NCBI GenBank assembly: GCA_007182875.1
Contig: AP019514.1
Location: 2,728,001-2,792,000, forward strand
Direction: 5' to 3'
Length of the DNA stretch: 64,000 nucleotides
Source: Vreelandella sulfidaeris
Lineage (GTDB): Bacteria > Pseudomonadota > Gammaproteobacteria > Pseudomonadales > Halomonadaceae
Shown here: one piece after another, positions 43,703-56,581 of the stretch
Layout: each line of letters opens with the position of its first letter
Position numbering within the stretch: position 1 is the stretch's first letter
The notes under the pieces: model-generated
The model's input: only the letters and a program-made list of their open reading frames with translations
Databases searched by the model: none
Told to the model about the DNA's origin: nothing
Position numbers and translations under genes: made by a program

Positions 43703-44002
43703 TCAATCAGGCCACACAAGATGCGCGGGTACGCGGCCTTTGGCATCGAACAGCACCCCTTCATCGCGTAATTTACGGAGCTGTCGCTCGGCGCCACCGT
43801 GGTCAGCAAGCTTGAGTGATGCTGCGATCACGCGATGCCAGGGCAACTGATGGCCGTCAGGCAAGTGACGCATCGCTGAACCCACCATGCGCGGGGTAGC
43901 GCCCTCGGTCATTGCCGCAATGCGCCCATAGGTCGTCACTCGGCCCGGTGGAATTTGATCAACGATGGTGTAAATTTGCTCGAGTAATTCGGGCCGGGCC
44001 AT
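43703..44002 (-). CDS. Alkyltransferase-like (Atl) MGMT-fold protein
   Basis: Intact 99-residue protein with the methylguanine-DNA methyltransferase fold: IPPGRVTTYGRIAAM (DNA-binding wing) and LPWHRVIAASLKL. The active-site Cys of PCHRV is replaced by Trp (residue 55), the defining feature of Atl proteins, which bind O6-alkylguanine and hand it to nucleotide excision repair instead of removing the alkyl group. Confidence 0.9.
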   Translation of the reverse strand: MARPELLEQIYTIVDQIPPGRVTTYGRIAAMTEGATPRMVGSAMRHLPDGHQLPWHRVIAASLKLADHGGAERQLRKLRDEGVLFDAKGRVPAHLVWPD

Positions 44003-44043
44003 ACAACGTTATCCTCTTAACGCATAAACGTTTTTGCGGGTCC

Positions 44044-44649
44044 TTATAAACCCTCAACTAATTGATCAATTGCCTGGAAAGCTTCCTTGAGAGCAGCGTC
44101 ACGATGCTGTTCACCCATATTCAAGCCTTCAGCATAGACCACATGAGTATCTTTGATTCCCATGAGGCCTAGCATGGCTTTGAGGTGCGGCGTCTGGCTA
44201 TCCATTTCAGTGCCTGCGTATTTTCCACCACGAGCTGCCAGAATAATCGCACGCTTGCCTTCTACTAAACCTTGGGGGCCGTTCTCGGTGTAGCGGAACG
44301 TTTCACCGGCTCGCAATACGCGGTCAAACCACGCTTTCAGCTGTGAAGGGATGCCCAAGTTATACATCGGCACCGCAATTACCAGTACATCGTTAGCACG
44401 CAGCTCGGCCAGCAACGTCTCTGAGCGCGCAGCTAATGCCTGCTGCTCAGCGGTGCGCTCGGCGGCCGCCTGCCAAGCACCTAACTCGTTAATGTCCAGG
44501 TGGGGCAGCGCATTTTTGACCACATCACGCTGGGTGGCTTCGATACCATTGCGAGCGTTTGCTTGCTCGATAAAGCGGTTAGCCAGTGTGTTGGATTGGC
44601 CATTTTCCGCCAGAATAGAAGAGGTAATTATCAGGGCACGCGTCGTCAT
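44044..44649 (-). CDS. azoR: FMN-dependent NADH-azoreductase
   Basis: Intact flavodoxin-like quinone/azo reductase of about 201 residues. The FMN phosphate loop is ITSSILAENGQSNTL, and the flavin-contact segments are AVPMYNLGIPSQLKAWFD and LAARGGKYAGTEMDSQTPHL. I start at ATG 44649 (MTTRALIITSS); a TTG at 44661 is in frame. A palindrome of LysR-box type lies about 90-106 bp upstream. Confidence 0.92.
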   Translation of the reverse strand: MTTRALIITSSILAENGQSNTLANRFIEQANARNGIEATQRDVVKNALPHLDINELGAWQAAAERTAEQQALAARSETLLAELRANDVLVIAVPMYNLGIPSQLKAWFDRVLRAGETFRYTENGPQGLVEGKRAIILAARGGKYAGTEMDSQTPHLKAMLGLMGIKDTHVVYAEGLNMGEQHRDAALKEAFQAIDQLVEGL

Positions 44650-44738
44650 TGAAAGCTTCAAGGATCATTAGGTTGATGAGTTAGAGGCTATTCTACGACG
44701 CCCTACAGAAAGCAAAAGCGCAACGTTTTCCGGCTTGT

Positions 44739-44755
44739 ATTCGATTAAATCGAAT
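44739..44755. promoter_or_regulatory. LysR-type operator candidate upstream of azoR
   Basis: Perfect 17-bp palindrome ATTCGATT-A-AATCGAAT. It contains the T-N11-A pattern of LysR boxes (TTCGATTAAATCGAA). It lies between the azoR start and the end of a LysR gene on the same strand. Confidence 0.6.
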
Positions 44756-44848
44756 CATGCTGATGAAGGCCACGCTTTATTCATACTGTTTAATGATGCG
44801 GTGACCAGCTTAGCAAGCTAATAAGTGATACAGGCACTGCTCGTTATT

Positions 44849-45715
44849 CTATTTTATAGAGTCGCAAAGCCACTGCCACACCACCCTGCTTCGTCGCTAA
44901 TATGGCGCCGGCTTGGTCGTACCAGCCAGAAGCGCTCATCGCTAGGCACAGTGATATCAAAGGGCGCCACTAAGTCACTACGCTGCTCCATCAAGCGCCG
45001 ATGGGTTAGCGAGACACCGCCACCCTGGCTTGCCAGTGCCAACGTCATTACTTGATTATCGCAAGTGAGCGACCAGCACTGCGCTTCCACATGGGCAACG
45101 CCCGCTTCTTGTAGCCACCCCGGCCACCCTACCCCAAAGCCGACTGCATGCAGTAGCGTGTGCCCGGCGAGATCCTCTGGCGCAGAGAGCGTCTTTGCCA
45201 AAGTCTCCGAGCACACCGGCAACAGGTGTTCTTCCCCCTAGCGGCTGCATTTCAATCCCCGTCCACTCCCCCCTTACCGTAGCGTATTTCGATATCGGCG
45301 CCTTCGGGGCCAAAGTCATCGGGCCAGATAGCACTCACCAAACGAATCGCCACCTGAGGATGCGCGCGATGAAAAGCAATTAAACGCCGTGCCAGCCACG
45401 ACTGCTGAATGACTGGCGTAGCACGCAGTGTGACCGGCTGCTCTGAGGTGCTACCAAACACTTCTAAAGTGCCTTCGCTAATACGCACAAAGGCATCGTG
45501 AATACTTGGCAGCCACGCCTGTCCGGCAGGCGTTAACGTTAAACTACGCGCATGGCGCACGAACAGCTTTGTCCCACGCGATCTTCCAGCAGCCTGACGC
45601 GCTGGCTGATCGCCGCTTGAGTGACACCGAGTTCATGGCCAGCGGCAGTAAAACTCAAGGTACGCGCCGCAGATTCAAAGGCTTGCAGCCATAGCAATGG
45701 CGGTAACTGACTCAT
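44849..45715 (-). CDS. LysR-family transcriptional regulator (GcvA-like), frameshifted
   Basis: About 290 residues. The helix-turn-helix is in the first frame (LLWLQAFESAARTLSFTAAG; ELGVTQAAISQRVRLLEDRV) from ATG 45715. Breaks near 45575 and 45240 lead to the effector-binding domain (TLRATPVIQQSWLARRLIAF) and a C-terminal frame ending near 44849. The layout resembles GcvA/AmpR-type LysR proteins. It is divergent from the gamma-butyrobetaine dioxygenase gene with 121 bp between starts, so control of that gene is likely. It also precedes azoR. Confidence 0.85.
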
Positions 45716-45836
45716 GAAAAGAGACCTATAAATTAAATGATGTCTTAGGGGCCAGATTAATCGTTTGTCAGCGCCGCTGCTACTCCCCATCCTAGGTAAC
45801 CCTTATGCATTGCAGCAAAGGGAGCGATTCGGAGTG

Positions 45837-47038
45837 ATGATGAATAGCGCAGTACAAGCGACACCAACGACAATGACAGCGACAACAACAAAACAATCCC
45901 AAGCCCCCGAGATGGGCGAATTAAGCCCTTATCAAACGGGTCCGGCGCTTACCCAAGCGACCCTGGTGCAAACAGGTGTGGCACTTGAATGGCAAGATGG
46001 CCAGCAAAGCACGCTGCCCCTACTTTGGTTGCGCGACCACTGCGCATGCCAAGCCTGCCGCCACCCGCAGACCCGCGAAAGGCTGTACCTGCCCCTTGAA
46101 CCGATTACTGAACCGCCCAGTGTTGCTCTGCTGGACGGGCACTTACATATAAACTGGCAGGATGGTCATGTCAGTGCGTTTCATAGCGGCTGGCTCTACC
46201 AACGCCGCCCGGAATCCAAGCTAGTCTCGTCAGTACCCAACGCAAAGCCGTGGAAAGATAACTTCACTCCCGAGTGCGTGCGGCACGATGATTTTTTAAA
46301 ACCTCAGGGGTGAAAAAGCGGCTAACCGCCATGCTTCGCGACGGCTTGGCATTGATTACCGACGGCCCGCTGGTCGAAGAAGAAGTGAGCCGCTTGGCTG
46401 AGCGCATTGGGCCCCAACGCGCCACCAATTTTGGCGCCCGTTTCGATGTACGCTCCAAGCCCAATCCCAATAATGCAGCGTACACCGCCGTCGGTTTGCC
46501 GCTGCATATCGATTTGCCCAACTGGCGTCATCCGCCGGACATTCAATTACTCTATTGCCTTCAGAATGGAGCCAGCGGCGGTGAATCGCTGTTTGCTGAC
46601 GGTGCCCGCGTGGTAGAAGCGCTACGCCAGCAGGACCCAAAAGCGCTCGCCATACTCAGCGAAACGCCCATCGACTTTCGCTTCCAGGATGAGAGCCACG
46701 ATATTTCAATGCGAGCGCCGGTAGTTACGCTAGATAGCACGGGTAACTTGGTCGAGATGCGGCTGAACAACTGGATTCGCGATGCGCTTCATTTACCGGT
46801 AGAACAAATGGATGCTTGGTACAGTGCTTACGCTTTACTGTGGAAGCTGTTCCATAGCGAGGCCCACCAGATAGAGTTTACTCTTCGCCCTGGGCAAATG
46901 GTCGCCTTTGACAATCGCCGTGTACTTCATGGGCGTCGCGAGTTCGATCCCAACAGTGGCGCACGTCATTTACAAGGCACCTATCTAGACCGCGATATGC
47001 TGGCCTCACGCCTTCGCGTGTTAGCCCGCCAAGACTAA
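45837..47038 (+). CDS. Gamma-butyrobetaine dioxygenase, one frameshift
   Basis: Fe(II)/2-oxoglutarate enzyme of about 400 residues that makes carnitine from gamma-butyrobetaine. The N-terminal zinc-binding domain has LWLRDHCACQACRHPQTRER (three Cys and a His). The TauD-like domain follows after a break near 46308: TAVGLPLHIDLPNWRHPPDI supplies the HxD iron ligands and RRVLHGRREF the distal His and the 2-oxoglutarate Arg. I start at ATG 45837, about a dozen bases after AGGGAG. Next to a betaine-type binding protein, it suggests uptake and turnover of quaternary amines for carbon or osmoprotection. Confidence 0.9.
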
Positions 47039-47114
47039 TTAAACGCGGCATTCAGTTAGCGTATTTGATTAATAAAAACACCTATCTGACAATAAAACCT
47101 AGCAAGGAGATCTT

Positions 47115-48050
47115 ATGACACACCTCAAACCGCTCGCTTCAGGCATTGCACTCGCCACCACCGCGCTCTTCGTCTCGGCCGCTCAAGCCGACGATCAGAC
47201 CCTGGATTTCGGCGTACCTGCCTGGCCCGGCATTACCGTCAAAACCGCCATTGCCGAGCAGCTATTGAATCCGCTCGGCTACGACACCTCTACTCAGGAC
47301 ATCGGCCTGCAGGTAATTTACCAAGGTATCGAAAGCGGCGATATTGACGTATTTCTAGGGGCATGGCTGCCCGCCCAGCGCGACATGTTCAATCCGCGTA
47401 AAGAATCAGGCGTACTCATCGATGTCGCCAATAATGTCGATGGCGCACAAATGACGTTGGCGGTGCCGGAATACCTCTATGAAAGCGGCATTCAAAGCTT
47501 TGCCGATCTAGATGAGCACCGCGATCAGTTCGATGGCGAAATACATGGCTTTGGTGCAGGCTCTGCCGCCAGCGAGATACTCCACAATGCGATCGATAAC
47601 GACATCTGGGGATTAGGAGACTGGCAGGTTGTCGATACCAGTGAAGTGGGCATGCTTTCAGCAGCGAAAGATGCAATCTCGGGAAGAACCCATTGTATGG
47701 GTAGGCTGGACACCCACTGGATGAACCTTGAATTGCCGATGCGTTACCTGGAAGACCCCGAAGATCTGTTCGGTGAAAATAACGGCGAAAGCGACGTATT
47801 GACCCTTCTGCGTAGTGACTACGCCGAGGCCAATCCTAACGTCGTGGCGTTCTTTGAGCAGTTCACCTTCTCTGCCGAAGAGCAGAGCTGGATGATTCAA
47901 GCCTTCGGTCAGGAAGAACAAGACCTTGCCGATGTCGCCGAACAGTGGATCAACGATCACCCTGAGCGTATCGAAGCGATGCTGGCTGGCGTCACCACCA
48001 CCGATGGTGAACCTGCATGGCCGGTGATTGAAGCGCAGCTCAACAACTAA
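47115..48050 (+). CDS. Choline/betaine-type ABC transporter substrate-binding protein
   Basis: Periplasmic OpuAC-family protein, 311 residues, with signal peptide (ALATTALFVSAAQA, cut before DDQTL). The start LDFGVPAWPGITVKTAIAEQ and GAWLPAQRDMF match ChoX-type choline/glycine-betaine binders, where Trp residues form a cage round the quaternary ammonium. The frame is open throughout, but residues about 190-200 are out of frame between two indels (near 47680 and 47714); repair gives EEPIVWVGWTPHWMN with the expected Trp residues. No permease or ATPase gene is adjacent. Its place after the gamma-butyrobetaine dioxygenase suggests a carnitine, butyrobetaine or choline ligand. Confidence 0.88.
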   Translation: MTHLKPLASGIALATTALFVSAAQADDQTLDFGVPAWPGITVKTAIAEQLLNPLGYDTSTQDIGLQVIYQGIESGDIDVFLGAWLPAQRDMFNPRKESGVLIDVANNVDGAQMTLAVPEYLYESGIQSFADLDEHRDQFDGEIHGFGAGSAASEILHNAIDNDIWGLGDWQVVDTSEVGMLSAAKDAISGRTHCMGRLDTHWMNLELPMRYLEDPEDLFGENNGESDVLTLLRSDYAEANPNVVAFFEQFTFSAEEQSWMIQAFGQEEQDLADVAEQWINDHPERIEAMLAGVTTTDGEPAWPVIEAQLNN

Positions 48051-48083
48051 CCATCAGCATTAAAGGCGCCTTCATCCCATCGG

Positions 48084-48110
48084 GCGGCTAGCGTATGCTA
48101 GCGCTTTTTT
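48084..48110 (+). terminator. Terminator after the binding-protein gene
   Basis: Stem GCTAGC-GTAT-GCTAGC, extendable on the outside with a bulge, followed by TTTTTT at 48105-48110. It lies about 35 bases after the stop. Confidence 0.8.
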
Positions 48111-48134
48111 AGCTTTTAGCCGCTGGGAATAGGC

Positions 48135-48858
48135 ATGTCGAGAACACTGAGTAAGGGCGTGGGCCTGCTGGTAGCCGTCGTGTTGTTAGGCGTTATGTGG
48201 CATTTGCTACAGCGCTACGATCTACTGACCCAGGCACGCCTTAGCGAGCTGATCGGTTACATTCGCCAGTGGCGTACCGCGCCCTGGATGTTTGCGGCGG
48301 TGATGGCCGTCTACGCTGGTGCCCTACTGGTAATGTTTCCGCTTAGCCTACTGGTAATCGTCACGGGCTTACTGTTTGGCCCGGCGTGGGGAGCTTGGCA
48401 TACGCCACACTCGGTACGTTGACGTCATCGGTTGTGTCGTACTGGGTAGGCCACTGGTTAGGTCGGGAAGCGCTGATACGCTATGGCGGGCGTCATTTGC
48501 GCGGCCTTTCGGGTTACTTATCGAAGCGCGGCATTCGCACCATGACGGTCATTAATCTGCTGCCGCTCGCACCGTTCACGCTGACGAATATGTTGGCGGG
48601 TGCCTTTCATCTTAAATTTCGCGACTACATGATCGGTTCCACCCTCGGTATTGTGCCGGGGTTGGCAGCGGTCATTCTTTTGGGTAGCCAGCTAGGCGCT
48701 CTGTTTACTGCGGCTTCCACAAAGAACTCATATTGGCAGGCGCCGGGCTTGTCGCTGGGGTTAGCCTGCTGATCGGGCTTAAGTACTATGCCAGCCAGCG
48801 TCAAGATGCCAACCGCCGCCAAGCAGCCAAAAAACGGCCTCACCGTGATGGGGAGTGA
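48135..48858 (+). CDS. TVP38/TMEM64 (VTT domain) membrane protein, frameshifted
   Basis: About 241-residue membrane protein. N-terminal helix GLLVAVVLLGVMWHLL, then VYAGALLVMFPLSLLVIVTG and GLLFGPAWGA, a break near 48405, then SYWVGHWLGREALIRYGG, INLLPLAPFTLTNMLAGAFH and GIVPGLAAVILLGSQLGAL, the family's re-entrant and core segments. A further break near 48725 leads to a basic tail ending at 48858. VTT proteins (DedA relatives) are linked to lipid scrambling and flippase activity. It overlaps the convergent glycosyltransferase by 19 bases. Confidence 0.87.
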
Positions 48859-50025
48859 TACTTGGCGAGCACTTCAGCGTAAAAGGCTGCTACCGCGGTG
48901 GCAAAGTTGGCAATATCGAACTCTTCGGCAAAATGGCTGGCCTGTTTGCCCAACTGCTGGCGTAGCACTGCATTATCTTTTAGCTCGAGGACTTTTGGCC
49001 CCACGCCTGACGATTTTGCGGCGTTTTGAAGCCATTCACGCCCTGGCGCACTACGTCATCTATCCCGCTCGAGCGTACCGCCACCACGGGCAGACCCGCC
49101 GACATCGCTTCGAGAATCACCATCCCCTGGGTTTCCGACGTAGAAGCGAACACAAATATATCGCCCAGGTGATAGTAAAGCGCCATTTGATCAGGCGGCA
49201 CCGCCCCACTAACGTGACCCATGCGGTGAGCTTTAAAGTATCGATCTGATATTGAATCGCCTCGCGGTCCGGCCCGTCACCGATGAGCAGTAGATGAAAG
49301 TCCTCATGCCTTTGGGTCTGCAACTCGGCGAGCGCTTCCAACATAAAGCCAATATTCTTCTCTTTGCTAATGCGCGAGACGCTAATCAATATTTTGCGCG
49401 CGGGATCGATTGCCAGCCGCTTACGTAATACTTCTAACTCCCCCGCCTCGGCATGTGCAAAACGCTCCACATCAATGCCCGTGGGTTGCACTAGCGAGGG
49501 CGTTTTAACGCCGATCATGCGTAGATACTCCTCTGCGGAGTAGGTGGGCACGATCACCCCTTGGCAGCGGTTTGAGAAGTGCTTAATCAGGTAGTGCGAG
49601 ATCAAATTACGAAAAAGCGCACCGGGCAGCGGCACAAAGTGGGCATAGTGCTCTAGGCGGGTATGATAAGTGTAGACCACCGGCACCTTCAGCCGACGCC
49701 CCATCAACAGCCCCATGGAACCAAGCCAAAAGGGGTGGTGAACATGAATTAAATCGGGCTTGAAGGCACGCAGGCAATGGCGAAAGCGGACGCTGAATGG
49801 GTTGGTTAGCCGGAACTCGCCCTTCTCACCAAATGCCATCAATGTCGGGATACGTTTTATCGACTTATCGTCCTGCCAGGCTTCTCGGTAGCGTGGCACT
49901 AACAGCTGGATCGAATGCCCTAAGTCGTGCAAACCATTGCGCAAGCGATCCACCGATACCGACACGCCGGACACAAACGGAAAGTAGTTATTGGATACCA
50001 TCGCCACCCGCAAAGACTTACCCAA
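48840..50025 (-). CDS. GT4 glycosyltransferase resembling diacylglycerol glucosyltransferases, frameshifted
   Basis: About 395-residue GT-B enzyme. The N-terminal half reads LRVAMVSNNYFPFVSGVSVS, LIHVHHPFWLGSMGLLMGRR and PVVYTYHTRLEHYAHFVPLP, the pattern of glucosyl-diacylglycerol synthases. The donor-site ExxxxxxxE motif is ETQGMVILE (around 49115), preceded by FVFASTSETQG. Breaks lie near 49210 and 49010; the C-terminus ends at 48840. No ATG with a ribosome site fits: the only start keeping the first strand is a TTG at 50025, so it may be the C-terminal half of a protein that begins with the upstream phosphoesterase. Lipid acceptor is inference. Confidence 0.85.
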
Positions 50026-51083
50026 AAGGGCGTTGGATCGATATCAAAGTCGGGATAGTAATGTCGGTCTTCAAAAATGAGCCGATATAAACGCAGTGCT
50101 AACAGCGTCAGCAAACCCACAATCAGTAAAAAGCGGGTATAGCTGACGTAAAAGAAGGCGTACACCGTTGACCCAACGCTACTCAGCACCCGCCACCAGC
50201 CGGGGCTATCCACATTTAAGCGTACCGGCGCAATGGCGACATTTTCGCCCTCGACATCAACAATAACGTAGTGATGAAAGCTACTATCGGCATCAATCAA
50301 AATGCCGCCGGCGCCACCCGTAGTGACGTAATCCACCCCATTAATCGTCTGCTGTGAAAAGAGCGTTAAGTTAGCGGAGAATACCGTATCCACATTATGT
50401 TCCTCCGCCAGTGCCATGATGCCATCAGCCAGCCGGGGGTCATTAAGGTAATTGTCGGCTTCAAACAGCGGCGCATCGCTCACTACGTTGTGCAGAGGCA
50501 AGCCAATAAACAGGAACCGGTGCTGTGCTTCGGAAGCCGCGAGCTCCCTGGAGAGCCAATCAAGCTGCCAGGAGGTGGACGACTTGCCCGTACCATCAAG
50601 AAAAATAAAGTGGCTATTGCCTGCAACGAAAGAGTAAAAATGCGGGCCAAAATACTCATAAAAAAGGTAACTGCCAAAATCACTGTCTTCGTTGTCGCCA
50701 TAGGTGAGTAAGTACGGGACATTAAGCAGTTCCAGGCTGTGGTAGATCGCCTGATAGCTCTCCTGTTGACCTCCGCTGACGGCGTTACCTGCCGAGATAA
50801 GAAAGTCGATTCCACCCTGGTTGATCAGCGGCACAATCTCATCTTGAAAAACGTTTACCGAGTTATTGATATTACCCACCACGGCAAAACGGTAGTCGGT
50901 TCGCTCCGTCAACACCTCACGGATATCGGCCACCTGGAGAGTATGCACCGATTCAAACTCAGGTTCCGCCACGTACAGCCAAATTTGGTGAGCAATCAGG
51001 CCAACCACCAGGGCGAGATTAAGAGAGAAAAACAGCCGCAACCAGCGCTGGTGTGAGAGACGAAGAAAGGAACGTCGTGGCAT
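50026..51083 (-). CDS. Degenerate metallophosphoesterase-like membrane protein, possibly fused to the GT4 domain
   Basis: About 353 residues: cytoplasmic start MPRRSFLRLSHQRW, helix LRLFFSLNLALVVGLIAHQI, a periplasmic calcineurin-like domain (about residues 60-300), then a second hydrophobic region around FLLIVGLLTLLALRLYRLIF. The fold is recognisable from YEYFGPHFYSFVAGNSHFIF and INGVDYVTTGGAGG, but each metal-ligand motif is changed: the first Asp motif is VVGNINN, GDxV is AGNAV, GNHD is GDNED, the HxP region is GLPLHN and GHxH is ANLTLF. It is thus probably inactive. The frame runs on without a stop into the glycosyltransferase; one added T near 50020 would join them. A TGA 22 bases before the GT4 TTG allows two genes instead if an earlier indel exists. 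Confidence 0.75.
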
Positions 51084-51119
51084 TTAAAAGTGCTTTTCAA
51101 TGATAAATGGGGTGCACCG

Positions 51120-51626
51120 CTACTGCAGCGGTTCAAGCCTTAAAATGCCATTACTATACAGCAACACAGCAGCGCTGAGTCGAGTAGACGTCCCCGCGTT
51201 AGCGAGACTCACACCGTTTAAGGTGGCTAGCAAACGCCTTGGTCCCGCTTGGTTGCGGTGCTCTCCTAGCCATATTCCCTGCCAAGTACCTAAGGCCAGG
51301 CGACCATCCCGTACCGCCAAGGTGAGTTGAGTACCTAGCAAGCTGGCAACGACGTGCGCAGGCATATCATCGGGTCCTTCCAGGGTATGACGAAAATAGG
51401 GTAAATCTTCAGGTACTAGGCGACTCAAGAAGGCATCCAGATCGTGGCGTACATCCGGATCAGTATTTTCATTGAGCGTTAACGAGGGCGGAAGTATGCA
51501 TTAACTGTAGGTGCAACATGCCGATATGAACGTCGTTCAAACATGGCAGCGCCCTGGCCACATCATCGGTAATAAGATGAAAACCGCGGCCCATCTCAGG
51601 TAAATGAATCTCTTGTTGGAACCACA
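51120..51626 (-). CDS. yjbQ: YjbQ/UPF0047 family protein, frameshifted
   Basis: Small protein of the secondary thiamine-phosphate synthase YjbQ family, about 140 residues plus a tail. ATG 51626 follows AGGTGG and opens [21 protein letters not shown] missing base near 51492 separates it from [20 protein letters not shown], then [13 protein letters not shown] and [20 protein letters not shown] follow. The family normally stops soon after this; here the frame runs another 30 residues, so another indel near the end is likely. Confidence 0.87.
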
Positions 51627-51700
51627 TAAACCCACCTTTTATTTGTTATGTAAACGAAGACACGTCATCACCAGCGTGCTCTTCTTGTGTGGCAAAATAA

Positions 51701-51757
51701 CGACGGTTAATAGTATGACGACGACTAATAGCATGACGACTACTAATAGCATGACGG
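51701..51757. repeat. 18-bp tandem repeat between yjbQ and a LysR gene
   Basis: Three 18-base units (CGACGACTAATAGCATGA and variants) start at 51701, 51719 and 51737, with a fourth beginning at 51755. Two to four differences separate neighbouring units. It lies 27 bases after the LysR stop and 75 bases before the yjbQ start. Confidence 0.85.
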
Positions 51758-51783
51758 CTACCCGTAGGCGTTAGTGGCAGGCC

Positions 51784-52722
51784 TTAGACAATAAGTCCCT
51801 CACTCTCTGGCAGTATCGACACCCGCCCTGCCATCTCGCGCTGAATAAACTCAATAAAGGCACGCAGCCGAGTAGGCACATGTCTGCGCTGCTCATACAC
51901 AGCATAAAAATCCGCGCGTATACTTTGCCATTCAGGTAGCAATGCTACCAATGCCCCGCTGGCAAGATGCTCGTTCACATCCCACCACGAGCGCAGCATG
52001 ACGCCATGCCCATCCAAAGCCAAACGAGTGATCACCTCTCCATCGTTGCTGGCTAAGCGACCACTGACTTTTACAGACTGCGCCTGGGTTGGTTGGTTCT
52101 TGCACTCAAAGCGCCATAGCGGGAAATCACTGTCGTTCTCGCGAATCACCAAGCATGCATGCTGCTGCAAATCTGCCGGGGTTTGAATCGGCGATGCTTG
52201 GGCAATATAGGCAGGCGATGCGCAGAGTATCCGGCGATTAGTCAAAATTCGCCGGGCGACTAAACGTGATTCCGGCGGCTCCCCAACGCGAATGCCAATA
52301 TCAAAGCCATGGTCGCTCAAGTTGAGCGGAAAATTGGTCAGTTCCAACCACCCTTCGACCTGGGGATGTTCGGCGCAAAAACGCGATAGCAATGGCGCAA
52401 TATGACGACGACCAAAGCCGAACGTGGCGTTCACCCGCAATCGCCCGCTAAGCGCCTGATTAGCACGCTCACCCAATGAACTCTCCAGCTCATCAAGCTC
52501 ATCTAAAATGAGCGCACCACGGGCCAGATAGCGTTCGCCCTCAGCAGTCAGCGTTAAACGCCGAGTAGTGCGGGCAGCCAACTCTACTCCCAGACGCGCT
52601 TCCAGCTGCTTTAAGCGCTTGCTTACCGCCGAAAGCGACAGCCCCAGCTCGCGTGCGGTCGCCGTTAAATTGCCTGCCCGGGCCAGATGCTGAAAAAACG
52701 CTAAATCATCCAGATACGCCAT
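51784..52722 (-). CDS. LysR-family transcriptional regulator (DmlR-like)
   Basis: Intact 312-residue regulator. Winged helix-turn-helix at residues 1-60 (AFFQHLARAGNLTATARELG, LSLSAVSKRLKQLEARLG) and a periplasmic-binding-like effector domain. Divergent from the D-malate/tartrate dehydrogenase gene with about 177 bp between starts; in E. coli DmlR sits divergently from dmlA and activates it with D-malate or L- or meso-tartrate. The same relation is inferred here. Confidence 0.92.
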   Translation of the reverse strand: MAYLDDLAFFQHLARAGNLTATARELGLSLSAVSKRLKQLEARLGVELAARTTRRLTLTAEGERYLARGALILDELDELESSLGERANQALSGRLRVNATFGFGRRHIAPLLSRFCAEHPQVEGWLELTNFPLNLSDHGFDIGIRVGEPPESRLVARRILTNRRILCASPAYIAQASPIQTPADLQQHACLVIRENDSDFPLWRFECKNQPTQAQSVKVSGRLASNDGEVITRLALDGHGVMLRSWWDVNEHLASGALVALLPEWQSIRADFYAVYEQRRHVPTRLRAFIEFIQREMAGRVSILPESEGLIV

Positions 52723-52899
52723 GCCACCTCAGCCATTCTCCACTTTTTCGCAACAATAGCTTGAATAGTAGCCTAATTATCTCTTCCTAAATAGCCGCTA
52801 CACTTGATCTTACTAGCCGGCTTGCTAGCGGTCTTACTAGCACGCGCCAGACCCGACACTTACAACCTCATCGTCATCAATAAAAACCAAGGAGTCACC

Positions 52900-53972
52900 A
52901 TGGCCCACCGTATTGCCATTATCGCCGGGGACGGCATCGGCACCGAAGTGATGCCCGAAGGCATTCGCGCGCTTGAAGCTGCGGCAAAGCGTTTTGATAT
53001 TGAGCTTGAGTTCACTACCTTTGAGTTCGGCAGCTGCGACTATTATTTAGAGCACGGCAAAATGCTACCGGATGATTGGTTTGAGCAGCTAAAAGGCTTT
53101 GATGCACTGTTTTATGGCGCGGTGGGCTGGCCCGATAAAGTACCTGATCACATTGTCTGTGGGGTTCACTGCTGCAGTTCCGTCGCCGATTTGATCAGTA
53201 CATCAATCTGCGCCCCTGCAAACTGATGCCCGGCATTAAAAGTCCATTAGCAGGCCGCGAACCCGGCGATATCGATTTTTATGTGGTGCGTGAGAACACC
53301 GAAGGCGAGTACTCAAGCGTTGGCGGCAAAATGTATGAAGGCACCGAGCGCGAAATCGTCATTCAGGAAACGGTGATGAGCCGCACCGGCGTTGATCGAG
53401 TGCTGAAATACGCGTTCGAATTGGCGCAAACCCGCCCGCGCAAGAAGCTTACGTCTGCCACCAAGTCCAACGGCATCTCAATTACCATGCCGTACTGGGA
53501 CGAACGCGTGATCGAAATGGCGAAAAGCTACCCAGAGATCGCGGTAGATAAATTCCATATCGATATTCTGACCGCCAACTTCGTTCTTCACCCGGATTGG
53601 TTCGACGTCGTCGTCGGCAGTAACTTGTTTGGCGACATCCTCTCCGATTTGGGGCCCGCCTGCACCGGCACGATCGGCATTGCGCCTTCGGCCAATATTA
53701 ATCCCGAAGGCAACTTCCCTAGCCTGTTCGAACCGGTACATGGCAGCGCACCAGATATCGCTGGCAAAGGTATTGCCAACCCCATCGGCCAAATCTGGTC
53801 AGGCGCCATGATGCTGGAGCATCTGGGCTACAAAGAAGCCGGTGATGCGATCGTGACGGCTATAGAAGAGGTACTTAGCGAAGGCAACAGCCAAGTTCTC
53901 ACCCGCGACGTAGGCGGCCAAGGCACAACAGAAAGCCTGGGCAAGGCGATTGCAGAGAAGCTCATCAAATGA
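52900..53972 (+). CDS. dmlA: D-malate / tartrate dehydrogenase (decarboxylating), one frameshift
   Basis: NAD-dependent beta-decarboxylating dehydrogenase of about 358 residues. The N-terminus is AHRIAIIAGDGIGTEVMPEG; a missing base near 53160 breaks LQFRRRFDQYINLRPCKL. The second half has FYVVRENTEGEYSSVGGKMY, ATKSNGISITMPYWDERV, the divalent-metal Asp in LFGDILSDLGPACTG, and EPVHGSAPDIAGKG. ENTEGEYS with GGKMY separates it from isopropylmalate and isocitrate dehydrogenases. RBS AAGGAG precedes ATG 52900. Regulated probably by the divergent LysR protein. Confidence 0.92.
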
Positions 53973-54020
53973 AACTGGCTAAATAGGGTTGTTGGTGAGC
54001 AATACCATGCTTAGCAACAG

Positions 54021-54056
54021 AAAAGCCTCGCTGGGCAAGACCCGCGAGGCTTTTTT
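54021..54056 (+). terminator. Terminator between dmlA and wrbA
   Basis: Eleven-base arms AAAAGCCTCGC / GCGAGGCTTTT with a 12-base loop and a run of T's to 54056. Symmetric A and T tracts make it suitable for both convergent genes. Confidence 0.88.
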
Positions 54057-54074
54057 ATGGCTGGCTAAAACGGA

Positions 54075-54674
54075 TTAACTGGCCAGCTTGGCAGCTGTTT
54101 TCGCGACTAGCTCACCCTGGAAACGGGCAATTTTCAGTTCACGCTCATCGGGTTGGCGAGAACCATCGCCACCGGCGATGGTCGCAGCGCCATAAGGCGT
54201 GCCGCCGCTAACCTTGGAAATATCAAACTGCTCTTCCACACCGTAGCCAATCGGCACAATGATCATGCCGTGGTGGGCAAGCGTAGTCCAGGTAGAGGTA
54301 ATTGTCATTTCATCGCCACCGCCTGTGCCGGTTGATGTGAACACACTGGCGACTTTACCGCGTAGTGATCCATTCGCCCACAGACCGCCAGTTTGATCAA
54401 AGAAAGTGCGCATTTGACCTGCCATATTGCCGAAGCGCGTCGGCGTGCCGACGATAATTGCATCGTAATCAGCAAGTTCTTGCGGAGTAGCTTCTGGCGT
54501 ATCGTAATCCTGCTTACCGCCTGCGTTTTTAAATGCTTCCGCTGGCATGGTTTCAGGCACTCGCTTAACCGTTACTTCTACGCCGCTAACGCCTTTTGCG
54601 CCCTCTGCGACGGCATGTGCCATCGTATCGATATGGCCGTACATGGAATAATAAAGAACCAATACCTTTGTCAT
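54075..54674 (-). CDS. wrbA: NAD(P)H:quinone oxidoreductase WrbA
   Basis: Intact 199-residue flavodoxin-like FMN enzyme reducing quinones in two-electron steps. FMN loop [35 protein letters not shown], and [20 protein letters not shown] with [13 protein letters not shown] are diagnostic. RBS AAGGAG lies before the ATG. A 13-bp tandem repeat lies 24 bases upstream of the start. Confidence 0.95.
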
Positions 54675-54697
54675 TGCTATCTCCTTGGCTACGTATC

Positions 54698-54762
54698 GCT
54701 TACATGAGTTGCTTACATGAGTTGCTTACATGAGTTGCTTACATGAATCGTTTTACATGAAT
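54698..54762. repeat. 13-bp tandem repeat upstream of wrbA
   Basis: Three identical units GCTTACATGAGTT start at 54698, 54711 and 54724, followed by two worn units at 54737 and 54750. It occupies positions about -24 to -88 relative to the wrbA ATG, where promoter elements would be expected. The identity of three units points to recent expansion. Confidence 0.9.
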
Positions 54763-54966
54763 GGCTTAGCGGTGCACTGGGCGTTTCCCCATGACTGCCC
54801 GTTCCCCCATAAAACAGTACCCTCAACATAGCGCACTCAAGCGTAGATAAAAGCGAATGTTTTCGTCCGCGGGCATCGATTTCATCGATGATCGCCCCCT
54901 GCGCTTTATGAGATCCACCACTAACTTTTACATTGTTTAACTTTTAACGTATCCAAGGAGTCTGGA

Positions 54967-55406
54967 ATGACGATTTTTGAAGCCCTGCGCAAGGATCATG
55001 ATATTCAGCGTGATTTGCTTGCCCGCCTAGTCGAGACTCATGGAGACAGCGACGAGCGCGACTCACTCTACAAGCAGGTGAAAAAGAGTTGCATGGTCAT
55101 GCCGCCGCTGAAGAGCGGGCTTTCTACATCCCGCTCATGGAAATGGACCTGACCCAGGAAAAGGCACGACACAGCGTGGCCGAGCACCATGAAATTGACG
55201 AGCTTATAGAATTGCTTGATGAAACCGACTACAGCGCTACTCATTGGCTGACCCACGCCAAACAGCTTCAGGAGCTAGTGACCCATCATTTGGATGAAGA
55301 AGAGCAGGAAGTATTTCAACTGGCTGGCCGAGGCCTGAAAGATAAGCAAAAGACCGCGCTCGCCAGTGAGTACCATGAAGAGATGCAGCGCCAACGTTCG
55401 GCGTAG
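54967..55406 (+). CDS. Hemerythrin-domain protein, one frameshift
   Basis: Four-helix di-iron protein of about 147 residues. MTIFEALRKDHDIQRDLLAR is followed by a break near 55085 (a base lost in KKELHGHAAAEE). The His and Glu ligands lie in KDHD, HGHAAAEE, AEHHEIDELIE and THHLDEEEQEVF. Hemerythrins bind O2 or protect against NO and peroxide; the specific role is unknown. RBS AAGGAG before the ATG. Confidence 0.88.
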
Positions 55407-55425
55407 CCATAGCTACCGATTCATA

Positions 55426-55455
55426 AAGCGCTTATGCCTTCGGCATAGGCGCTTT
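55426..55455 (+). terminator. Terminator after the hemerythrin gene
   Basis: Stem AAGCGCTTATGCC / GGCATAGGCGCTT (one mismatch pair inside) with a TTC loop and following TTT, 20 bases after the stop. Confidence 0.85.
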
Positions 55456-55606
55456 TTCATGCCCGCTCCTTTAGGCTTTTCACGAATACGCTGGGCTTTT
55501 TCACGCGAACGACCTCCAGGCTTGTGGCAACCGCCCAGCGTGGTAAACCTAGGTTGACTTATTGACGGGTAACGATACTGAAAACAATCTATTCAAGGAG
55601 CCGACA

Positions 55607-56581
55607 ATGCTAGGCCAATGGCTCGACTGGTCGCTCGATGGGCAGCTTCCCGCCGCCAGCCAAGGCGTCTTCGCAAGCGGCACTTACCATTTGCATGCAC
55701 CTGGCATTTTGGAATTAATCCCGAACCAAGTCAGTTCTGCCGCCCATGCATGCATTTACTCAGCCGCGGTCCATGGTAATGAAACCGCCCCGGTTGAATT
55801 AGTGGGTGAATGGTTAAGCGGCATAGAAGCCGGTAGCGTAACGCTTGGTGCCCCCGTACTGGTGATTTTAGGAAACCTGCCTGCGCTTAAAGCACAACAG
55901 CGTTTTCTTACTACCAACTTAAACCGGCTTTTTAACCGAGACCTCGACGCTGAAGGCGAAGAGCCAGACCGCGCCCGGGAATTAATGACCGCCGTGGATA
56001 ATTTTTATGCGCGGCATTCAGCGCTCCCAAGCTGCACTACGACCTGCATACCGCCATTAGGGATAGCCGATACCCCGTTTCGTAGTGGAACCCTTTGCCG
56101 AGTCACCCACCAATACTCAACAGTGGGGCTGGTTAGCCGCCGCAGACATGCAAGCAGTATTGCATCAGCACCAACATAGCTGGACATTCTCCCACTACAG
56201 CAAGCATTATCACGCTGCTCAGGCATTTACCTTTGAATTAGGACGCGTGGCTCCTTTTGGCCAGAACGATATGGCATCACTAAAACCGATGCGTGCGTTG
56301 CTCACGGCGTTAAGTGAAGGCCGCTCCCTGCCGATCGGCCAGCCGCTCAACTGCTTTTTTTCCAGGTTCAACACGAGTTAATTCGTCACTCCGAGAACTT
56401 TCAACTCTGTTTTTCTGAGGACACGGCCAACTTCAGCCGTTTCGAGCCGGGCACTCTGCTGGCACAAGACGGCGAAGCGGGTGATTTTCGGGTAGGCGAT
56501 ACGCCCCTCTACGTTGTGTTTCCTAATGCTAACGTTGAAGTAGGCGCCCGCGCGGCGCTGTTGGTAGCACCGATTACCTAG
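55607..56581 (+). CDS. astE: Succinylglutamate desuccinylase, frameshifted
   Basis: Zinc carboxypeptidase-like amidohydrolase releasing succinate and glutamate at the end of the arginine succinyltransferase pathway. About 325 residues from ATG 55607 (RBS AAGGAG). Zinc ligands lie in AAVHGNETAPVELV and in LHYDLHTAIR (after a break near 56025); the catalytic region is TFELGRVAPFGQND. Breaks also near 56075 and 56360. Upstream of an arginine/ornithine-type ABC transporter, it parallels Pseudomonas aot loci that include an AstE relative. The other ast genes are not in the window. Confidence 0.88.

What the first reader, a model, noticed from the sequence alone, without database searches (positions are those of the whole stretch)
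48840..51083. Pseudo-metallophosphoesterase apparently fused through a membrane segment to a lipid-type GT4 glycosyltransferase
The periplasmic domain keeps the calcineurin-phosphoesterase fold markers, but every ligand motif is altered (VVGNINN, AGNAV, GDNED, GLPLHN, ANLTLF), so metal binding is very unlikely. There is no stop before, and no good start for, the following GT4 enzyme, whose donor-site ETQGMVILE is intact; one added base joins them. That would place a dead phosphatase outside the membrane on a cytoplasmic glycosyltransferase that resembles diacylglycerol glucosyltransferases. A sensor or substrate-presenting role is a testable idea. I know of no described system with this layout.
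Basis: partly seen in the sequence, partly recalled or inferred. Interest (0 to 1): 0.68.

Follow-up and report, generated by a model that had tools for sequence, protein, structure and literature searches.

The report
Glycolipid synthase with dead-phosphatase ectodomain
A bacterium of the salt-loving Halomonas group carries one membrane protein that joins a likely sugar-to-lipid enzyme inside the cell to an outward-facing phosphatase-type domain whose key metal-binding residues are replaced; relatives keep the same fusion, nearly always beside a gene for one of two kinds of likely lipid-flipping protein, which suggests an undescribed kind of glycolipid factory.

Summary
In the window the gene (48840-51083, minus strand) is cut by single-base gaps, but in relatives it is one open frame (739-880 codons, stop to stop): membrane helix, calcineurin-type phosphoesterase domain, membrane helix, GT4 glycosyltransferase. 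I found it in ten family-level groups of one bacterial class. The ectodomain has the phosphoesterase fold (best Z 18.3, to GpdQ), but both metal-binding Asp positions are lost in 52 of 52 distinct proteins, replaced by Asn in 51 and 52 of them; the other ligands are changed or variable. The GT4 part is nearest to diacylglycerol and phosphatidylglycerol glycosyltransferases, below the cut-off of either family.

New here: the gene next door is a VTT-domain protein (23 of 52) or an MprF-type flippase-like protein (27 of 52); 2 have neither. Within the genus all 21 genomes with the gene also have the VTT orthologue, and 14 of the other 16 lack it. In relatives without the fusion an ordinary GT4 can stand beside the VTT gene at the same place.

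Best reading: a glycolipid synthase with a dedicated flippase and a repurposed periplasmic receptor or scaffold domain. The lipid, the flipping and the ectodomain's role are untested. Nine searches of an open-access library found no description of this layout.

The parts
48840..51083 (-). Fused gene: N-terminal helix, periplasmic pseudo-metallophosphoesterase, second helix, cytoplasmic GT4 glycosyltransferase. Broken in this assembly by single-base gaps near 50026, 49205 and 48996.
   Evidence: one open frame in relatives
50970..51032 (-). First membrane helix (about residues 18-38), preceded by an Arg-rich N-terminus
   Evidence: hydropathy of seven representatives; helix 11-38 in the low-confidence full-length model; topology inferred
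50184..50963 (-). Calcineurin-like phosphoesterase-fold ectodomain, residues 41-300, metal ligands replaced (N71, N73, N100, D130/N131, L195, N238, T240)
   Evidence: model m5534766f2d90, fold searches, alignment with ordinary phosphoesterases, ligand table
50073..50171 (-). Second membrane helix (about residues 305-337)
   Evidence: hydropathy; helices 296-312 and 315-337 in the low-confidence model
48840..50025 (-). GT4 glycosyltransferase domain (frames broken near 49205 and 48996); SETQGMVILE donor-site motif
48135..48858 (+). VTT-domain membrane protein, convergent with the fused gene and overlapping its 3' end by 19 bases; also split by frame breaks in this assembly
   Evidence: co-occurrence; stop position read by comparison with the relative's protein

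Best explanation
The protein is an inner-membrane glycolipid synthase. Its cytoplasmic GT4 domain most likely transfers a sugar (glucose or GlcNAc from a UDP-sugar) to a membrane lipid (diacylglycerol or phosphatidylglycerol). A partner encoded next door, a VTT-domain protein in some lineages and an MprF-type flippase-like protein in others, most likely moves the product to the outer leaflet. The periplasmic domain is a phosphoesterase that has lost its classical catalytic site; most likely it binds the flipped lipid's head group or the flippase and so couples or regulates synthesis. Shown here: the fusion, the fold, the loss of the Asp ligands, the GT4 donor motif, the partner association. 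Inferred: lipid acceptor, sugar, flipping, topology, and any regulatory role of the ectodomain.
For: Fusion kept as one frame in ten family-level groups: f1, f20, f6, f288, f291, f16 and f275 and f25, f180 and f128. Ectodomain fold: GpdQ 2zo9 Z 18.3, rmsd 3.3, 214 aligned; purple acid phosphatases Z up to 17.9. Ligands: motif I Asp is Asn in 51 and Ser in 1 of 52, motif I His is Asn in 48, motif II Asp is Asn in 52 of 52, while mean column conservation in the ectodomain is 0.64; G99, N100, E132, S236, G256, G259 and G260 are invariant, which suggests a pocket under constraint. GT: best NCBIfam match alpha-monoglucosyldiacylglycerol synthase, 209.8 bits, then GlcNAc-phosphatidylglycerol synthase, 138.5 bits; SETQGMV[IVL][LI]E in 52 of 52 (the script asked for ETQG, and none of the 53 loci given was dropped for lack of it). 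Partner: 50 of 52 distinct loci have a VTT (23) or LPG_synthase_TM (27) gene next door, against 2-7 VTT and 0-3 LPG_synthase_TM hits in each of nine whole genomes. Family of the partner checked by Pfam for three representatives and by TIGR00374 'flippase-like' for one; the rest rest on tblastn similarity. Co-occurrence in 37 genus genomes: 21 both, 0 fusion only, 2 VTT only, 14 neither (Fisher p about 2e-8, not corrected for relatedness). The tree needs two partner changes. Precedent: gpgSDF (GT4, deacetylase, predicted UPF0104 flippase) makes GlcN-PG in Pseudomonas aeruginosa (PMC12713373, abstract and passages read).
Against: No biochemical data. The GT scores are about half (209.8 of 400) and under a third (138.5 of 480) of the two families' cut-offs, so acceptor and sugar are open. 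Of the eight ligand-site positions only three are strongly conserved in their new state (0.98, 0.92, 1.00); the other five are at 0.42-0.77, near or below the domain mean, so the case for a used pocket is partial. A DedA-family protein, PA4029, flips undecaprenyl phosphate and prefers it over phospholipids (PMC12893004, abstract and outline read), so a VTT partner may serve lipid-carrier recycling instead. No deacetylase was among the six neighbours, from three LPG_TM-type loci, that I scanned, unlike gpgSDF. The precedents do not prove flipping: the PA14 mutant in the predicted flippase still makes GlcN-PG, at a lower level, and overproduced HexSD without HexF makes near-normal product. The ectodomain model is weak at motifs II and III (pLDDT under 50; mean 70; only the best of five models is usable, the others 44-55). 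Two loci have neither partner next door; in one (G025) the VTT gene is on another contig, in the other a DUF374 gene lies there.
Confidence: 0.55

Rival explanations
1. The GT4 domain glycosylates a polyprenyl-phosphate lipid carrier or an envelope polysaccharide precursor, and the VTT or MprF-like partner flips or recycles that carrier. The ectodomain helps downstream transfer in the periplasm.
For: DedA-family PA4029 is an undecaprenyl phosphate flippase (PMC12893004, abstract). In one lineage (L083) two further genes clustering with GT4 lie near the fusion.
Against: The two best NCBIfam matches of the GT domain act on diacylglycerol or phosphatidylglycerol, ahead of the polyprenyl-linked families listed. 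In most of the stretches read the neighbours do not look like a polysaccharide cluster (read by eye; ten neighbours by Pfam).
Confidence: 0.2
2. The ectodomain is a pure scaffold: an inert fold that holds a partner, as Vps29 and GAP50 are thought to do, with no ligand pocket.
For: Among the fold matches are GAP50, titled the anchor in the Plasmodium inner membrane complex (3tgh, Z 17.5), and Vps29 entries. That these work mainly as scaffolds is recalled. Five of the eight ligand-site positions drift.
Against: Three ligand positions are nearly invariant as Asn (51, 48 and 52 of 52) rather than drifting.
Confidence: 0.25
3. The ectodomain is still an enzyme with a changed metal site or none, for example trimming the head group of the flipped lipid.
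For: An acidic residue at the motif III Asn position in 35 of 52, invariant E132, His at motif IV in 25 of 52.
Against: No Asp at motif I or II in any of 52; His positions vary between lineages.
Confidence: 0.12
4. The apparent fusion or the dead site is a sequencing artefact of this assembly.
For: The assembly has many frame breaks.
Against: Relatives from other assemblies have the fusion in one frame and the same substituted motifs. The artefact is the opposite: errors split a real fusion.
Confidence: 0.01

Closest known systems
gpgSDF of Pseudomonas aeruginosa (GlcN-phosphatidylglycerol synthesis; PMC12713373)
   Same: A GT4 lipid glycosyltransferase encoded with a predicted UPF0104 flippase (abstract and passages).
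   Different: GpgS is predicted cytoplasmic in the paper's table, the word metallophosphoesterase does not occur in the text, and a deacetylase is part of the operon. Our GT scores 138.5 against a cut-off of 480 for that family, and the partner of L076 43.5 against 320 for the GlcN-PG flippase.
hexSDF of Clostridioides difficile (PMC10128005)
   Same: Glycolipid synthase plus MprF-like predicted flippase as one operon (passages read).
   Different: HexS is annotated as a monogalactosyldiacylglycerol synthase; the passages I read mention no phosphoesterase ectodomain; a deacetylase is present.
alpha-monoglucosyldiacylglycerol synthase (NF049988)
   Same: Best family match over the whole GT4 domain.
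   Different: About half the curated cut-off; the 398-position model matches only the GT4 part.
GpdQ and purple acid phosphatases (calcineurin-like phosphoesterases)
   Same: Fold of the ectodomain.
   Different: Metal ligands replaced, held between two membrane helices and joined to a glycosyltransferase.
GAP50 of Plasmodium (3tgh)
   Same: A phosphatase-fold protein titled as a membrane-complex anchor.
   Different: Not joined to a glycosyltransferase (recalled); 15% identity in the structural alignment.

Membership tests
Calcineurin-like metallophosphoesterase superfamily (PF00149) | Phosphoesterase fold | tested here: met
   VIA Z 18.3 to GpdQ over 214 residues; Foldseek E 7e-11. By sequence PF00149 gives 24.0 bits in L020 (cut-off 21.5), but 18.3 in L024 and 19.1 in the window, both under it.
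Calcineurin-like metallophosphoesterase superfamily (PF00149) | Metal ligands Asp-x-His, Asp, Asn-His, His, His-x-His (pattern recalled, and seen in ordinary members) | tested here: not met
   Both Asp positions lost in 52 of 52; His positions changed or variable.
GT4 retaining glycosyltransferases | GT4 domains and E-x7-E donor motif | tested here: met
   PF00534 129.8 bits, PF13439 104.8 bits; MshA, BshA and PimB' structures among the best fold matches of a low-confidence model; motif in 52 of 52. Retention of configuration not testable here.
alpha-monoglucosyldiacylglycerol synthase NF049988 | Curated cut-off 400 bits | tested here: not met
   209.8 and 213.1 bits.
GlcNAc-phosphatidylglycerol synthase NF053787 (GpgS) | Curated cut-off 480 bits | tested here: not met
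   138.5 and 117.3 bits.
gpgSDF / hexSDF-type module | GT gene next to a UPF0104/MprF-type flippase gene | tested here: not met
   Not met in the window, where a VTT gene stands in that place; met in 27 of 52 related loci.
gpgSDF / hexSDF-type module | Deacetylase gene in the operon | tested here: inconclusive
   None among six neighbours from three LPG_TM-type loci; not searched systematically.
VTT domain (PF09335), for the partner | Pfam gathering score 33.9 | tested here: met
   Partner of the nearest relative 84.6 bits, that of L084 86.6. The window's own copy is split and was not scanned.
Glycolipid flippase, for the partner | Translocation of the glycolipid | not testable with these tools
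   Needs a transport assay.

The most novel reading that the evidence does not exclude
A VTT-domain protein is a dedicated glycolipid flippase that can be exchanged for an MprF-type flippase. The glycolipid synthase it serves reads the result on the far side of the membrane through a metal-free phosphoesterase pocket that binds the flipped head group, so synthesis and flipping are coupled across the membrane by one polypeptide.
Probability: 0.27. Interest if true: 0.82.

Novelty: new variant of a known kind. Interest (0 to 1): 0.62.

Why it matters
Glycolipids are made on the inner leaflet and many are displayed on the outer one; how a cell matches the two steps is, to my knowledge, largely open. 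A synthase with its own outward-facing, catalytically degenerate domain and an exchangeable flippase-type gene would offer a simple genetic handle on that coupling. It would also point to glycolipids as possible cargo for one branch of the VTT superfamily. The family occurs in named, culturable Halomonas and Vreelandella strains, so tests are practical.

Tried and rejected
Separate genes with a stop at the junction: rejected; apart from copies broken by indels or contig ends, the relatives are one frame. Restored metal ligands in relatives: looked for and not found at the Asp positions. Pseudo-domain encoded without the GT: not found in the samples searched; in the class sample, besides the fused genes, the ectodomain query matched 12 of 369 genomes weakly (E from 1.8e-7 to 1e-3), and those matches that I read in full (five) look like ordinary phosphoesterases. 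Full-length structure model: poor (mean pLDDT 59, pTM 0.42); only its GT matches were used. Several recent swaps of the partner: I expected them, but the tree needs only two changes, and it is a quick tree with long, unsure branches (L202, L049 and others). The co-occurrence test is not corrected for relatedness. 'VTT or LPG_TM, not both' was seen only within the flanks held, which are short (about 0.2-0.3 kb) on the 3' side of the loci. Repeats in the region: nothing of note. Paper searches for the layout or for glucosyl-phosphatidylglycerol in Halomonas: nothing relevant in the listings; two searches gave the three papers cited. The library is open-access only, so a description elsewhere is possible. 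That Halomonas makes glucosyl-phosphatidylglycerol is my recollection and was not confirmed. One search was a mistyped, empty query and tells nothing.
Full report
What is there. The gene runs from the ATG at 51083 to the stop at 48840 on the minus strand. In this assembly it is broken: compared with its nearest relative the window lacks single bases near 50026, 49205 and 48996, and the assembly is only 74.6% complete by estimate. That guess is right.

The fusion is real. Of 58 related genomes 22 have a match to the N-terminal part; 20 show one open frame of 748-794 codons, one is the window's own genome and one is cut by a contig end. In 21 named loci, all labelled Halomonas or Vreelandella, 18 have one frame covering both parts; L044 ends with its contig; L039 carries several one- or two-base indels and L040 a 35-base duplication against relatives. 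One relative of the window's genus, G031, has the same protein as Vreelandella neptunia (L003 and L024), which places the window in the Halomonas group. Wider searches found the full fusion in 28 of 390 genomes of the order (E <= 1e-150, matches spanning both parts). In the phylum sample 12 of 398 genomes matched at E <= 1e-60: six over both parts in one frame, the own genome in two pieces, five on the GT part only. In the class sample 7 of 369 genomes had strong matches, one of them the broken own copy, and 12 had weak ones; five of the weak ones, read in full, look like ordinary phosphoesterases. In the order of one distant carrier it was 4 of 63.

Anatomy. Hydropathy of seven representatives shows one membrane segment near the N-terminus and one before the GT4 domain (residues 307-338 in L003); L049 has a further weak peak in the GT part. 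With an Arg-rich N-terminus and basic residues after the second helix, the middle domain should be periplasmic and the GT4 domain cytoplasmic (inference). The ectodomain was modelled alone from 19 sequences (best model mean pLDDT 70, pTM 0.77; the other four 44-55). It matches GpdQ (Z 18.3, rmsd 3.3, 214 aligned), purple acid phosphatases (Z up to 17.9) and GAP50 (Z 17.5) (Foldseek list). The loops at motifs II and III and after the TGGAGG stretch are under pLDDT 50, so the reading of the site rests on sequence alignment.

The metal site. Aligned with seven ordinary phosphoesterases from the same searches (13 fused proteins), the ligand positions are clear. In 52 distinct fused proteins (53 loci, one genome counted twice; the own broken copy, the contig-end copy L018, repeat fetches and the named loci L024-L044 were not put in): motif I Asp is Asn 51, Ser 1; motif I His is Asn 48, Ser 3, Arg 1; motif II Asp is Asn 52; motif III Asn is Glu 24, Asp 11, Pro 9, Ala 5, Gln 2, Lys 1; motif III His is Asn 29, His 14, Lys 5, Gln 2, Arg 1, Glu 1; motif IV His is His 25, Leu 18, others 9; first His of motif V is Asn 40, others 12, none His; last His is Ser 22, Pro 10, Thr 9, His 6, others 5. 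So no protein has either Asp, and the two-metal site cannot form in the known way. Against a fully metal-free reading, 35 of 52 have an acidic residue at the motif III Asn position and E132 is invariant. Three of the eight positions are more conserved than the domain average of 0.64 by far (0.98, 0.92, 1.00), which argues for a pocket in use; the other five (0.42-0.77) are not, which argues less for it.

The glycosyltransferase. Pfam domains of GT4 enzymes score far over cut-off. The best NCBIfam model is alpha-monoglucosyldiacylglycerol synthase (209.8 bits; cut-off 400), then GlcNAc-phosphatidylglycerol synthase (138.5; cut-off 480). It is a relative of these, not a member of either. The donor motif is intact in 52 of 52.

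The partner. Next to the fused gene lies, in 23 of 52 loci, a VTT-domain gene and, in 27 of 52, an LPG_synthase_TM gene; not both within the flanks held; in 2 neither. Nine carrier genomes hold 2-7 VTT hits and 0-3 LPG_synthase_TM hits each, so chance adjacency should be below about one in a hundred (my estimate). The LPG_synthase_TM gene is on the same strand just upstream, and the ends overlap by four bases in the five 14-15 kb stretches of that kind that I read with both genes called (L076, L085, L086, L081, L082, with the L076 start); the VTT gene is convergent in some clades and divergent in others. TIGR00374 names the LPG_synthase_TM partner of L076 'flippase-like' (97.2 bits, cut-off 43.2). 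Of 37 genomes of the window's genus, 21 have the fused gene (one seen only as a contig-end piece, one broken) and the VTT orthologue, none the fused gene alone, 2 VTT alone, 14 neither (Fisher p 2e-8, uncorrected). In G025 the two are on different contigs and both are kept. L202 has a DUF374 gene (27.6 bits, cut-off 26.8; lipid acyltransferase-like by recollection) where the partner would be.

The same locus without the fusion. In four genomes of other genera of the family (L071-L074) and in G030 of the window's genus (L177) an ordinary GT4 stands directly beside a VTT gene. The window's flanking genes recur there: the glycine-betaine-type binding protein gene beside the VTT gene in L073, L074 and L177, and the LysR-type gene on the other side in L073 and L074 (71-74%) and, less alike (51-53%), in L071 and L072 (PF04069 in the window). 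So L073 and L074 share both flanks with the window, L177 one, L071 and L072 one weakly. The two of these GT4 enzymes that I scanned also have alpha-monoglucosyldiacylglycerol synthase as best model (158.9 and 166.1 bits). Against a general rule, seven GT4 paralogue loci (L112-L118) and those of G039 and G051 (L075, L090, L091, L180) had no VTT match in the flanks held; a longer stretch of G051 (L179) has a weak one further off. In a second clade of the genus (L077, L078) the fused gene lies elsewhere, without that binding-protein gene, and divergent from its VTT gene.

History. On a quick tree of 52 proteins the two partner types need two changes, against a shuffled mean of about 17. Long branches make the deepest part unsure. 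I had expected more swaps; the data show two.

Mechanism proposed. Synthesis by the GT4 domain on the inner leaflet, movement by the partner, and reading or holding by the ectodomain outside. Precedents for GT plus predicted flippase are gpgSDF (PMC12713373, abstract and passages) and hexSDF (PMC10128005, passages); in what I read flipping itself was shown in neither, and in both the product is still made without the predicted flippase. A DedA protein flips undecaprenyl phosphate (PMC12893004, abstract and outline), which is the main rival cargo.

Novelty. Nine paper searches listed no description of a phosphoesterase domain fused to a glycosyltransferase with this layout; the library is open-access only. 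I rate it a new variant of the known GT-plus-flippase module.

Noticed in passing
window 43703-56179 and whole assembly: Several genes look split by frame breaks, for example a dehydrogenase at 52804-53972, a LysR-type regulator at 44854-45790 and an oxygenase at 45765-47038 (names by eye); the assembly is 74.6% complete by estimate.
   Followed up: partly
L039 and L040 (fused gene): Two named public genomes carry the same fused gene broken: L039 by several one- or two-base indels, L040 by a 35-base duplication in the ectodomain region.
   Followed up: partly
L176 6434-7117 (G024): A VTT orthologue without a GT4 gene beside it but with the window's LysR-type and dehydrogenase genes near by, perhaps a locus that lost the synthase.
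   Followed up: partly
L071-L074, L177: The ordinary GT4 beside the VTT gene runs on past the GT4 domain with a C-terminal extension of unknown role, longer in some than in others.
   Followed up: no
L077 8396-11449, L078 9048-12086, L084 7944-11084: A large gene that looks like an RND-type exporter lies next to or near the fused gene in three loci (named by eye).
   Followed up: no
L024 2784-3413: A lipocalin gene lies two genes from the fusion; relatives of it are in L033 and L088. A lipid link is possible.
   Followed up: no
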